DNA of 64,000 bases from Terriglobia bacterium (lineage in GTDB: Bacteria > Acidobacteriota > Terriglobia > JAIQFV01), in the NCBI GenBank assembly GCA_020072965.1, contig JAIQFY010000001.1, positions 62,001 to 126,000 of the forward strand, written 5' to 3'. This document shows positions 34,973-40,471 of the stretch, in pieces. The position numbers and the translations under genes are program-made. Positions within the stretch are counted from its first letter, which is position 1. Every line of letters begins with the position of its first letter. A model generated the notes under the pieces. The model worked only from the letters and a program-made list of their open reading frames with translations. It did not search any database and had not been told where the DNA came from.

Positions 34973-36829
34973 ATGAGTACAAATTTCGAGAACTCCAAAC
35001 CTGAGTTCCCCATCCTGACGGTGATCCCGTCCGCGTCCAGTTCGGGCGAAAAGGGACCCATCCAGATTTCAACGGTCCCTTCCACCGAGCAACTGATCAA
35101 AGAGAAATTGCTCGAGGAGCGGCTGCGATTAATCCGGGAGTTGGGATATGAAGAGAAGAAGACAAACCGGTTCAAAAAACCTGAGGAAAAGCCATTCACC
35201 GCTTCCCAGCGCAACCACACAACGATCCTGTTTGGCGGTCTAACATGGAAGCACGAGAAGATTATTCACGGGGCCTTGGAAGGCCTCGGCTACAAATGTG
35301 AAGCCGTGCCTACGCCCAATGTGCGTGCCTTCCAGTTGGGAAAGGAGTACGGGAATAACGGACAGTGTAATCCCACGTATTTCACCGTCGGAAATCTCGT
35401 CCAGTACCTCCAGAGGCTTGAAGAGTCAGGCATGGCCCGCCAGGACATCATTGACAACTATGTTTTCTTTACGGCAGGCGCCTGCGGACCGTGCCGTTTT
35501 GGAATGTACGAAGCCGAATACCGCCTGGCCTTGCGCAACTCCGGTTTTGACGGTTTCCGTGTCCTACTCTTTCAACAGTCCGGCGGGCTGAACCAGGCTG
35601 AGGCGGAAGCGGGCCTGGAAATGAATCTCGATTTCTTCCTCGGGATTCTCAACGCCATGAACATTGGCGATTTGATCAATGACTGCGCCTACCAGATTCG
35701 GCCTTTTGAGGTGAAAAAAGGCGAAACCGATCAGGTGCTTGATGAGTGCGTTGACTATCTGCACGACGTGATTAAGAAACACGAACCGTACAAAATCGAA
35801 GGAAAATTCGCGGAATTGGTTAATCGTTTTCCTTCCGCCGCCGGGACGGCGGAATATGTGGGCAAGTTCCTGACCCAGCTCTACGGCGATGAATACACCG
35901 GGGCGCTTCGCCATGTACGCGATCGGTTGAATTCCATTGAGGTGGACCGTACCCGCATCAAGCCGATTGTAAAAATTACCGGTGAGTTTTGGGCTCAGAC
36001 CACAGAGGGCGAGGGCAACTTCAACATGTTCAAGTTCCTTGAACGGGAAGGCGCCCAGGTCCTGGTGGAGCCGGTGGGAACGTGGATCATGTATATGATC
36101 CATCAAGCCAAACAGGGCATTCGAGACCGCAAGGGGGTGGAGGAGAAGCAAGAAGCGGCGAAAGCGTGGGAGGTCACCAAGAAGCTGGCGCAGAATTGGC
36201 ACTACCGGAGCGTTCTTGGAAAATTGACCGTGGCTGAGAAGATTTTCAAGCGCGAATGGAACCGCTTGCGAGATGCGCTCGACCATATGCCGCACGACCT
36301 GACCGACCAGTATGAACTCCAGCGGTTGGGCCATCCGTTTTACAACAGTCGCGCCGGCGGTGGCGAAGGGCACCTGGAAGTCGCGAAAAACATCTATTAC
36401 TCCAACAAGGGGATCTGCCACATGGTCCTCTCACTGAAACCGTTTGGCTGCATGCCTTCGACCCAATCCGATGGGGCGCAATCGGCAGTCGTAAACCAGT
36501 ACAAGGACATGATCTATCTGCCCATCGAAACGTCCGGCGAGGGCGAAATCAACGCTCATAGCCGGGTCCAGATGGCGCTGGGCGAGGCCAAGGTGAAAGC
36601 CAAGGCGGAATTTGCAGAGGTTCTTAGACAAGCGGGTTACACCTTGGACGAGGTGAAAGCTTTTGTGGACGAGCATCCGGAACTGAAGCGGCCGATGTAC
36701 AAAGTTCCTCATTACAAGGGAGTCATCGGGGTGGGCGCATCCTTCATAAAGCATGTGGGTGAATTGATGAAAGCGGAATCGCGCTCAACAGTTTCTTTCA
36801 CCGACCAGCAGGTTCAAGCCTCAGCGTAG
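34973..36829 (+). CDS. 2-hydroxyacyl-CoA dehydratase (HgdB)-related Fe-S protein
   Basis: 618 residues, cytoplasmic. After a 60-residue unrelated lead it carries the domain found in the dehydratase component or activase-related COG3580/3581 proteins: ILFGGLTWKHEKIIHGALEG, LGKEYGNNGQC, ACGPCRFGMYEAEYR, FGCMPSTQSDGAQ. Cys132, Cys171, Cys174, Cys238, Cys482 and Cys493 sit in conserved-looking contexts and could hold one or two Fe-S clusters. 75 bases ahead of the giant activase on the same strand. In many bacteria these modules are fused in one protein of about 1400 residues; here they are split. No acyl-CoA dehydratase subunits, CoA transferases or electron-transfer flavoproteins are adjacent, so the substrate is unknown. 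Confidence 0.75.
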   Translation: MSTNFENSKPEFPILTVIPSASSSGEKGPIQISTVPSTEQLIKEKLLEERLRLIRELGYEEKKTNRFKKPEEKPFTASQRNHTTILFGGLTWKHEKIIHGALEGLGYKCEAVPTPNVRAFQLGKEYGNNGQCNPTYFTVGNLVQYLQRLEESGMARQDIIDNYVFFTAGACGPCRFGMYEAEYRLALRNSGFDGFRVLLFQQSGGLNQAEAEAGLEMNLDFFLGILNAMNIGDLINDCAYQIRPFEVKKGETDQVLDECVDYLHDVIKKHEPYKIEGKFAELVNRFPSAAGTAEYVGKFLTQLYGDEYTGALRHVRDRLNSIEVDRTRIKPIVKITGEFWAQTTEGEGNFNMFKFLEREGAQVLVEPVGTWIMYMIHQAKQGIRDRKGVEEKQEAAKAWEVTKKLAQNWHYRSVLGKLTVAEKIFKREWNRLRDALDHMPHDLTDQYELQRLGHPFYNSRAGGGEGHLEVAKNIYYSNKGICHMVLSLKPFGCMPSTQSDGAQSAVVNQYKDMIYLPIETSGEGEINAHSRVQMALGEAKVKAKAEFAEVLRQAGYTLDEVKAFVDEHPELKRPMYKVPHYKGVIGVGASFIKHVGELMKAESRSTVSFTDQQVQASA

Positions 36830-36904
36830 GATCGTCCCGCTGGATGGATGACCGGACCCTGAACGCCAGGCGTCTCACGAACACAACCATTGAGGGATTA
36901 GAGA

Positions 36905-39900: not shown

Positions 39901-40471
39901 CTTTGCCCAGGACTCCCTGCCAATCGATGACGACATTCTGGATCGGCTCTTTGGCGACGAGGTTCGAGCCGGCGACATTAAGCATCCCATGGATGTCAAC
40001 GACGTCTGGAAGAACAGCTATTCGGAAAACACCACTCGAAAGGTGTGGGCGGCCAAGTACGTGGCGCGCCATCCCAACCTCATCGCCCTCGAGTTGTCTT
40101 CCTTCAAATGCGGACACGACGCTCCCATTTACACCGTCGTTGAGGAGATCGTCCAGAATTCCGGGACGCCGTATTTCTGTTTCAAGGACATCGACGAGAA
40201 CAAACCCACCGGTTCCATCAAAATTCGTGTCGAGACGATTACGTACTTCCTGAAGCGATACCGCGAGGACATGATTGCGAATAAGAATAAGGAACAGACC
40301 CTGGAACAACGACTGGCCGAATACGAGCGCCGGCTCCGCACTCAGTTGACGGCGCCTGAGAGTTCTCCTCGGGAGGTTTCGGAGGAGCTCTTGCCCCCGA
40401 TTCTCGACAACTACTTCCCGGCAAGTCAGGTGGCGGCGACGGTGGAGGAGGAGCGTCGAGTCAGCAGCTGA
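36905..40471 (+). CDS. Tandem BadF/BcrA-type activase with DUF2229 module
   Basis: 1188 residues. Two ASKHA ATPase domains of the BcrAD/BadFG/HgdC type lie in tandem: the first with GMDVGSTTVKAVVID near residue 13, the second with GLDGGSTSTKAVLLDK near residue 358. Each has a cysteine pair 39 residues apart (Cys140/Cys179 and Cys483/Cys522), the spacing of the HgdC Fe-S ligands Cys127/Cys166. A Cys656-x2-Cys659-x3-Cys663 motif follows. The C-terminal half is DUF2229-like (RIGIPRVLNMYSQNPLFSAY, GAIDPCFPSKVGIPHVHNL, GRPYHNDPGINHEI). HgdC-type activases use ATP hydrolysis to push one low-potential electron into a partner Fe-S enzyme. The neighbour at 34973 is the likely partner; the reaction is unknown. 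Confidence 0.82.
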   Translation: MDNVNQKNYLIGMDVGSTTVKAVVIDTATDEILWKDYQRHDTKQPEKTLELLQRIEKEVPIPNPEQVRIFITGSGGSGIAPRIGAKFVQEVNAVSLAVEKLYPKTGSVIELGGQDAKIIIFKEDPETGKKKKIPSMNDKCAGGTGAVIDKINAKLRIPSDELCKQGYMGRKLHPVAGKCGVFAETDINSLQKMGVPRDELMASLFEAIVGQNLAVLTRGNTLRPEVLLLGGPNTYIQGMMEAWKYNIPKVWQERNYPLPEGVDPADLIKVPDNAQYFAAIGACEYGKTEEAEIGVYKGWQDLEHYITFGRAEEKMKKGAGAGLSKNEEDLNAFRERYKHPKFVPATFQRGEVVEGFIGLDGGSTSTKAVLLDKNRNVLVKTYQLSKGNPIEDTIEVFGKLRKQVEDQGATLNVLGVGTTGYAKDILKDTIQADVALVETVAHTESALQFYKDVDVICDVGGQDIKLIILKNRQVKDFKLNTQCSAGNGYFLQSTAEGFGIPVEQYADIAFKAQSMPTFGYGCAVFMQSDIVDFQRQGWKPEEIMAGLAAVLPKNIWLYVSQIPNIAALGTNFVLQGGTQHNLAAVKTQVDFIESRFKGKEVQPRVIVHEHCGESGAIGAAIECVRIHENGHRTSFIGMDAVQKISYVTHRNENTRCYFCKNKCLRTFIDVKTGVLENIETPKKSKIPLEAGIKRLIVGNSCEKGLVEDVDDMRVIKKGLDTVKLSNPNLVELAAKDCWKSMKPLPVADPIPRFAVTAAQKKRVELMKKRSQLRIGIPRVLNMYSQNPLFSAYFESLGVKPENLVYSDFTTEQLYKEGAKRGAIDPCFPSKVGIPHVHNLLYVHHKKKPLDFIFFPMIDCLTTDLRNAQASRSCPTVAATPEAVKAAFMKEGDVFAKMGTRFLNTFVNLSTPKLFEKQMFDEFKEILGLGEEENHRAIHEAYKALDKFSNVLQRGKAREVLEQIEKEDRLGIVLLGRPYHNDPGINHEILEEFQKQGYPVFAQDSLPIDDDILDRLFGDEVRAGDIKHPMDVNDVWKNSYSENTTRKVWAAKYVARHPNLIALELSSFKCGHDAPIYTVVEEIVQNSGTPYFCFKDIDENKPTGSIKIRVETITYFLKRYREDMIANKNKEQTLEQRLAEYERRLRTQLTAPESSPREVSEELLPPILDNYFPASQVAATVEEERRVSS

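What the first reader, a model, noticed from the sequence alone, without database searches (positions are those of the whole stretch)
34973..40471. Two-gene Fe-S/ATPase system with no dehydratase or pathway genes nearby
An HgdB-related protein (six cysteines in conserved-looking settings) lies directly before the giant activase, and both end at one terminator. Classic systems sit with hadI/hadBC, bcr or amino-acid fermentation genes. None is here; the neighbours are aroA and an unrelated small gene. The pair may power a different low-potential reduction, as proposed for double-cubane cluster proteins. The substrate is unknown.
Basis: partly seen in the sequence, partly recalled or inferred. 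Interest (0 to 1): 0.7.

Follow-up and report, generated by a model that had tools for sequence, protein, structure and literature searches.

The report
ATP-driven lipid-reductase-like gene pair
A soil-type Acidobacteriota genome carries a split, reversed-order relative of the bacterial enzymes that turn membrane-lipid ester bonds into ether bonds, together with a small partner gene of a family we could not match to any known one; it is a good candidate for a membrane-lipid enzyme rather than an amino-acid fermentation enzyme.

Summary
The two genes are real. ORF2 (1188 aa) holds two activase ATPase domains, a CxxCxxxC linker and a HadC/BzdN/DCCP-fold reductase domain. ORF1 (618 aa) is a second protein of that fold. 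The pair is therefore a self-contained benzoyl-CoA-reductase-like machine; no dehydratase is missing. Its closest reachable sequence relatives are not HgdB or double-cubane proteins but PlsA/PlsR-type proteins (plasmalogen synthase / glycerol ester reductase): ORF2 is 29% identical to a Listeria PlsA-type protein over 1148 aa and 32% to a Haliovirga one over 1129 aa, ORF1 matches their C-terminal parts, and the Fe-S-type cysteines are shared. Lipid links: co-occurrence with tetraether synthase Tes in its class, and a fixed place behind hpnCDE in Ignavibacteria. Against a simple story: Tes correlates more strongly with a second PlsA-like pair type, and the own genome lacks HpnE and hopene cyclase. 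Best reading: an ATP-driven reductase of membrane-lipid esters, a new subfamily of the PlsA/PlsR/Ger superfamily (0.58). Activity is untested; no biochemically tested Ger or PlsA sequence could be reached.

The parts
34973..36829 (+). ORF1, 618 aa: second reductase subunit (PlsR-like, HAD/BCR/DCCP fold). Proposed cluster ligands C132, C174, C493; extra subfamily cysteine C171
   Evidence: ORF; matches C-terminal part of PlsA-type proteins; cysteines; model, fold
36905..40471 (+). ORF2, 1188 aa: tandem activase plus first reductase subunit (PlsA-like)
36938..37645 (+). ORF2 activase domain 1 (aa 12-247), cluster cysteines C140 and C179
   Evidence: activase-family match aa 12-247; cysteines in 51 of 51 ORF2-type rows and all six references
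37973..38767 (+). ORF2 activase domain 2 (aa 357-621), cluster cysteines C483 and C522
   Evidence: PF01869, aa 357-621; PDB HgdC and HadI matches
38870..39007 (+). ORF2 linker with CxxCxxxC ... C (C656, C659, C663, C701), probable additional [4Fe-4S] relay (inference)
   Evidence: 51 of 51 ORF2-type rows, and 5 of 6 references (not Paraclostridium)
39107..40261 (+). ORF2 reductase-fold domain (aa 735-1119; DUF2229 at aa 773-1005), proposed cluster ligands C826, C873, C1069
   Evidence: DUF2229; BzdN, HadC, DCCP Z 9.6-12.6; best unrelated row 6.7
40500..40524 (+). terminator-like stem and T-run between ORF2 and ORF3
40647..40922 (+). ORF3, 91 aa, conserved partner gene without a known family
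   Evidence: no family or structure match

Best explanation
ORF1-ORF2 encode an ATP-driven low-potential reductase of the PlsA/PlsR/Ger superfamily that most likely reduces acyl ester bonds of membrane glycerolipids to (vinyl or alkyl) ether bonds. Proposed mechanism: the two activase domains of ORF2 form an intramolecular pseudo-dimer that holds one [4Fe-4S] cluster by C140/C179/C483/C522 and hydrolyses ATP; the electron passes by the CxxCxxxC linker to the two reductase-fold subunits, ORF2 C-half (C826/C873/C1069) and ORF1 (C132/C174/C493), one of which binds the lipid ester carbonyl at a site-differentiated cluster and drives stepwise one-electron reduction and loss of water. ORF3 is a third, small component of unknown role. 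Shown by sequence or model: domain order, cysteines, fold, homology, conserved pairing and the ORF3 partnership. Inferred: clusters, electron path, substrate and product.
For: ORF2 aligns along nearly its whole length with a Listeria PlsA-type protein (29% over 1148 aa, E 1e-131), Acetoanaerobium (29% over 1112 aa) and Haliovirga (32% over 1129 aa, E 8e-162); ORF1 aligns with their C-terminal parts (E 6e-20 and 3e-23 for Listeria and Haliovirga). Profiles of ORF1 and of the ORF2 C-half find all three of these proteins, and no shuffled or reversed control. All 11 candidate ligand cysteines of ORF2 are present in 51 of 51 relatives and in Listeria, Acetoanaerobium, Haliovirga and the other two giants of the genome; the three of ORF1 are shared too. 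The tree splits PlsA-type plus ORF2-type from the C43 type with full SH-aLRT support (quick method, long branches warned). DUF2229 rings in T. maritima and Lactococcus lactis but not in E. coli among 14 control genomes, as expected from reports that T. maritima has Ger and Lactococcus PlsA while E. coli BL21 lacks plsA (passages read). Two activase domains ('BB') is the architecture reported for alkyl-ether-forming Ger. Lipid associations: Tes-positive genomes carry ORF1-type in 19 of 24 cases, Tes-negative ones in 69 of 275, and hpnE lies upstream in 17 of 17 testable Ignavibacteria-group loci.
Against: No validated Ger or PlsA sequence could be reached, so its place relative to them is unknown; the Listeria protein is annotated '2-hydroxyacyl-CoA dehydratase' and is PlsA only by its size, architecture and the literature statement that Listeria carries plsA. 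Identity is only 29-32%. Gene order is reversed and both proteins are longer. Tes goes with the C43-type pair more strongly (OR 66) than with ORF1-type (OR 11); in genomes without a C43-type pair the Tes link vanishes (1 of 5 against 32 of 260), and the more distant ORF1-type genomes show no Tes link. Ger2 of D. alkenivorans, a close Ger homologue, gave no ether lipid in E. coli (passages), so homology alone does not prove activity.
Confidence: 0.58

Rival explanations
1. A double-cubane-like (DCCP-type) or other reductase acting on an unknown small molecule.
For: ORF1 and ORF2 C-half models resemble DCCP (Z 6.6 and 12.2), but about equally HadC and BzdN; DCCPs also lack pathway genes (general knowledge).
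Against: Profiles of both proteins miss E. coli YjiM but find PlsA-type proteins; ORF1 has only four invariant cysteines.
Confidence: 0.15
2. A triterpenoid- or hopanoid-linked reductase, as suggested by the hpnCDE neighbourhood in Ignavibacteria.
For: An HpnE-like gene lies upstream of ORF1 in 17 of 17 testable loci of that group; gap 21-99 bp in 16; HpnC and HpnE pass and HpnD misses by 0.6 bits the curated cut-offs in L066.
Against: The window's genome (estimated 100% complete) has no HpnE over cut-off (best 35.8 bits) and no hopene cyclase match; outside the Ignavibacteria group no HpnC/D/E gene was clustered near the pair.
Confidence: 0.08
3. A reductive activator of another metalloenzyme, not itself a catalyst.
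For: The activase fold is also used in such roles (general knowledge); a radical SAM gene lies beside the pair in 8 of 89 loci.
Against: The pair carries two complete reductase-fold subunits with cluster-type cysteines; no constant metalloenzyme neighbour was seen.
Confidence: 0.08
4. An ordinary 2-hydroxyacyl-CoA dehydratase or benzoyl-CoA reductase with activator.
For: Same fold and same kind of parts; the genome has a separate HGD-D plus activase cluster on contig C41.
Against: No HGD-D match in ORF1 or ORF2; no HGD-D or DCCP-type neighbour in 89 loci; PlsA-type proteins are the nearest sequences.
Confidence: 0.04

Closest known systems
PlsA/PlsR plasmalogen synthase (C. perfringens CPE1194-1195; single-gene PlsA of Listeria, Enterococcus, Lactococcus)
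   Same: Two activase domains, DUF2229-type reductase domain and a second reductase part; shared cysteines
   Different: 29% identity to the Listeria protein; split with R before A; 1806 aa in total against 1475 in Listeria; ORF3 partner in the close clade
Glycerol ester reductase Ger (T. maritima Tmari_0479, D. alkenivorans SHJ90043)
   Same: 'BB' tandem activase architecture as described; T. maritima rings for DUF2229
Class I benzoyl-CoA reductase BzdNO(PQ) and 2-hydroxyisocaproyl-CoA dehydratase HadBC(I)
   Same: Reductase fold and activase family
   Different: No HGD-D sequence match, no CoA-pathway context
Double-cubane cluster protein DCCP / YjiM with YjiL
   Same: Fold; YjiL-like activase domains
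   Different: Activases fused in tandem to the reductase; ORF1 and ORF2 C-half profiles do not match YjiM
C43/C42-type pairs of the same genome
   Same: Same domain set; ORF2 26-27% identical to their large subunits
   Different: A-R order, 1073+427 and 1082+477 aa; stronger link to Tes

Membership tests
PlsA/PlsR/Ger superfamily | Near-full-length homology of the large protein to PlsA-type proteins, and of the second protein to their C-terminal part | tested here: met
PlsA/PlsR/Ger superfamily | Two activase domains plus two reductase-fold units, with cluster cysteines conserved | tested here: met
PlsA/PlsR (plasmalogen synthase proper) | A before R, fused or as an adjacent operon (typical, perhaps not defining) | tested here: not met
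   R-A order in 72 of 73 testable loci
PlsA/PlsR (plasmalogen synthase proper) | Falls inside the clade of validated PlsA or Ger | tested here: inconclusive
Ger (glycerol ester reductase) | Literature screen: E <= 1e-30 and > 30% identity to Ger | tested here: inconclusive
   32% and 29% to PlsA-type proteins, not to a validated Ger
Ger (glycerol ester reductase) | Converts glycerol ester to alkyl ether | not testable with these tools
   needs expression and lipid analysis
2-hydroxyacyl-CoA dehydratase (HgdAB, HadBC) | HGD-D (PF06050) match | tested here: not met
   0 of 40 ORF1 members; ORF2 no match
2-hydroxyacyl-CoA dehydratase (HgdAB, HadBC) | Neighbouring dehydratase genes | tested here: not met
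   0 of 1029 neighbourhood proteins match HGD-D/DCCP queries
2-hydroxyacyl-CoA dehydratase / BCR / DCCP fold | Shared fold of the reductase subunit | tested here: met
   ORF2 C-half Z 9.6-12.6; ORF1 Z 5.7-6.7 over about 265 residues, weaker, E 0.17 by Foldseek
DCCP | Sequence relationship to DCCP/YjiM | tested here: not met
   profiles of ORF1 and ORF2 C-half do not find YjiM at E <= 10
DCCP | [8Fe-9S] double-cubane cluster (six cysteines, recalled) | tested here: inconclusive
   ORF1 has four invariant cysteines; ORF2 C-half has seven, so a double cubane there is not excluded

The most novel reading that the evidence does not exclude
ORF1-ORF2-ORF3 is a distinct three-part ATP-driven lipid reductase with its own substrate or regiochemistry (for example the sn-2 ester, saturated-ether formation, or an isoprenoid-lipid step in Ignavibacteria), in which ORF3 is an essential new subunit. 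It would act alongside a second PlsA-like pair and Tes in Acidobacteriota that could make branched tetraether (brGDGT) lipids.
Probability: 0.33. Interest if true: 0.78.

Novelty: new variant of a known kind. Interest (0 to 1): 0.6.

Why it matters
How soil Acidobacteriota form the ether bonds of brGDGTs, the lipids behind a major palaeotemperature proxy, is open; homologues of PlsAR have only been proposed for Solibacter usitatus (passages read). This work separates at least two kinds of PlsAR-like pairs in such genomes, shows that one has reversed order and a conserved small partner, and gives presence/absence patterns that say which genes to test together. It also moves a family of 'acyl-CoA dehydratase activase' annotations away from amino-acid fermentation.

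Tried and rejected
Sequence look-ups that gave nothing: ORF1 against Pfam, NCBIfam and PDB, its 40-member profile against PDB (only chance serpin hits) and its members against Pfam; ORF3 against Pfam, NCBIfam and PDB. No Rfam match and no tRNA in the window.

Reaching a validated Ger: the one genome-contig scan was asked to bring T. maritima too; it was not among the 80 loci kept of 412. The 2022 paper that named Ger and the 2021 paper on plsA-plsR are not held.

Radical SAM neighbours (8 of 89 loci): five were scanned and reached no cut-off, so no role was assigned. The genes between ORF1 and ORF2 that I scanned in L066, L079 and L097 are T9SS-sorted surface proteins where they match anything (one of L097 matches nothing), i.e. 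probable insertions. I first suspected a hopene cyclase there; that was wrong.

Tes association: the 60% identity line that splits close from far ORF1 types was set after seeing the table, and Tes was chosen because of the literature. The control with the C43-type pair came out stronger than ORF1-type and is reported as evidence against a simple Tes link.

'Not in print' is claimed only as far as these searches go: (listings); no paper on the reversed-order pair, ORF3 or the hpnCDE link was seen in them. Papers: PMC13274423, PMC12838417, PMC11868695, PMC8788747, PMC10087280, PMC11150832, PMC11604127, PMC11971306, PMC10418091 passages only; PMC9702350 part 1 of 3.
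Full report
What is there. ORF1 (34973-36829, + strand, 618 aa) and ORF2 (36905-40471, + strand, 1188 aa) are intact and 75 bp apart. ORF2 has two BcrAD_BadFG domains and DUF2229; ORF1 has no family match. Upstream lie lon, thiL, a DUF2062 gene and aroA; downstream lie a terminator-like stem at 40500-40524 and ORF3, 40647-40922. The genome (5.9 Mb, 108 contigs) is inferred to be Acidobacteriota: several genomes of its class match named Acidobacteriota contigs by exact contig length (for example 141,532 and 21,195 bases).

Anatomy. 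An AlphaFold2 model of ORF1 (pLDDT 76, pTM 0.76) gives alignments of 260-269 residues (Z 5.7-6.7) only with 2-hydroxyisocaproyl-CoA dehydratase, BzdNO, a 3-methylbenzoyl-CoA reductase subunit and DCCP; the other rows cover about 70-200 residues. Foldseek alone gives the DCCP first at E 0.17, so this match is modest. The ORF2 C-half model (pLDDT 84) matches the same families at Z 9.6-12.6, against 6.7 for the best unrelated row. [quoted passage not shown]

Cysteines. In ORF2, C140, C179, C483, C522, C656, C659, C663, C701, C826, C873 and C1069 are present in 51 of 51 ORF2-type rows and in Listeria, Acetoanaerobium, Haliovirga, C43A and C42A; Paraclostridium lacks the four of the linker. In ORF1, C132, C174 and C493 are shared with Listeria, Acetoanaerobium, Haliovirga, C43R and C42R. 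C171 is invariant in the 40 rows of alignment A1 but was absent from one divergent relative, L040; Haliovirga has a cysteine there too. For comparison, the catalytic cluster of BzdO is held by three cysteines (PMC11971306, passages).

Relatives. ORF2 is 29% identical to a Listeria PlsA-type protein over 1148 aa (E 1e-131), 29% to Acetoanaerobium over 1112 aa and 32% to Haliovirga over 1129 aa (E 8e-162); ORF1 matches the C-terminal parts of Listeria and Haliovirga at E 6e-20 and 3e-23. Profiles confirm this and find neither YjiM nor two HGD-D proteins nor any shuffled or reversed sequence at E <= 10. The literature reports plsA/plsR orthologues in Listeria (PMC9702350), single-gene PlsA of 4.2-4.9 kb in lactic acid bacteria and Bifidobacterium (PMC12838417), Ger activity of T. 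maritima and D. alkenivorans proteins in E. coli (PMC11150832), and two activase domains in alkyl-ether formers (PMC13274423). In an unrooted quick tree of 71 rows, ORF2-type, PlsA-type and C43-type form three clans, and PlsA plus ORF2-type are split from the C43 type with SH-aLRT 100; the program warns of long branches.

Distribution and context. One genome-contig scan gave 412 relatives, of which 80 were kept, from Acidobacteriota, Ignavibacteriota/Chlorobiota/Bacteroidota, Neomarinimicrobiota, Zixibacteria and Latescibacterota. ORF2 follows ORF1 on the same strand in 72 of 80; in 7 of the other 8 the contig ends within 339 bp, and L077 lacks it with 6,450 bp to spare. In 18 loci labelled Ignavibacteria, Chlorobiota or Bacteroidetes, 17 have upstream sequence and all 17 carry an HpnE-like gene upstream of ORF1 on the same strand (21-99 bp away in 16, 3,389 bp in L065); 16 of them also have HpnC/D-like genes. 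L065 and L106 come from one MAG. HpnC and HpnE pass the curated cut-offs in L066, HpnD misses by 0.6 bits; the others are named by BLAST clustering only. The window's genome has no HpnE over cut-off and no hopene cyclase match, so this link belongs to that lineage. None of 1029 neighbourhood proteins from 89 loci hits HGD-D or DCCP queries at 1e-5.

ORF3. The small gene downstream is conserved in 8 of 51 named loci with at least 700 bp beyond ORF2, in Acidobacteriota, Neomarinimicrobiota, Zixibacteria and Latescibacterota, and in a same-genus genome. In 299 genomes of the class it occurs in 41; 38 of these 41 are among the 50 genomes with close ORF1 (at least 60% identity), 3 are not, and 0 of 38 genomes with distant ORF1 have it (odds ratio 260, Fisher p 6e-34, no correction for kinship). 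In 14 of the 38, ORF3 is on the same contig as ORF1 at the expected spacing; in the other 24 it is on another contig, so adjacency there is unknown or absent. Twelve of the 50 close genomes lack it. Twenty-one positions are invariant in nine sequences; no cysteine is among them.

Tetraether synthase. The genome has one Tes match over the NCBIfam cut-off (588 bits against 450). In the same 299 genomes (same handles), Tes occurs in 24; ORF1-type is in 19 of these 24 and in 69 of 275 without Tes (odds ratio 11, p 2e-7). Close ORF1 is in 17 of 24 against 33 of 275; permuting within families gives 8.8 expected against 17 observed, p about 1e-5; genera collapsed, odds ratio 7, p 3e-4. Distant ORF1 shows no link (2 of 38; p 0.29). 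Against a direct link: C43-type pairs (34 of 299) occur in 19 of 24 Tes genomes and 15 of 275 others (odds ratio 66). Among genomes with the C43 type, close ORF1 goes with Tes (16 of 19 against 1 of 15); among genomes without it, it does not (1 of 5 against 32 of 260). Sixteen genomes have all three, and 32 have close ORF1 alone. So ORF1-ORF2 probably has a role of its own that is also used where tetraethers may be made.

Conclusion. What it works like: a class I BCR-like, ATP-driven low-potential reductase. What it is: a new, split and reversed subfamily of the PlsA/PlsR/Ger superfamily, not filed as PlsA or Ger proper because the gene order differs and the placement and activity tests are missing. 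Most likely substrate: acyl esters of membrane lipids (inference from homology and from two lipid associations). The finding is neither a gap in an amino-acid fermentation pathway nor, on present evidence, a double-cubane protein.

Noticed in passing
G000 contigs C43 (L029:5887-10395) and C42 (L030:5366-10020): Two further PlsA/PlsR-like pairs in A-R order in the same genome, large subunits 56% identical to each other; this type tracks tetraether synthase Tes more tightly than the window's pair does.
   Followed up: partly
G000 contig C41 (L031:5712-10179): Two HGD-D proteins with two single-domain activases and a PaaX-type regulator nearby, probably a CoA-ester reductase or dehydratase of the classic kind.
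   Followed up: no
G000:C20:57659-59218 and G000:C24:137860-139392: Two radical SAM proteins at 322 and 308 bits to the Tes model, below its cut-off of 450; possibly further lipid-coupling enzymes.
   Followed up: no
L056:6121-6537, L066:6070-6486 and 13 other loci: Unknown 138-176-aa gene just before hpnC in Ignavibacteria-group loci, with a shared 'NFLTMEFYRK'-like stretch and no family match in the two copies scanned.
   Followed up: partly
L040, L115 (between the pair); L090, L098, L102, L105, L126 (upstream); L121 (other strand): A radical SAM protein of about 430-490 aa beside the pair in 8 of 89 loci; the five scanned reach no curated cut-off.
   Followed up: partly
L070:4914-11476: An Acidobacteriales contig carries an A-R (C43-type) pair and the R-A pair close together on opposite strands.
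   Followed up: no
window 40960-41200: Cluster of palindromic stretches between ORF3 and the next gene, REP-like by eye (inverted repeat arms 41036-41084 and 41087-41135).
   Followed up: no
control genomes: DUF2229 also rings in Thermus composti and Deinobacterium chartae, which I recall as aerobes and which would not be expected to use an oxygen-sensitive ether-lipid reductase.
   Followed up: no
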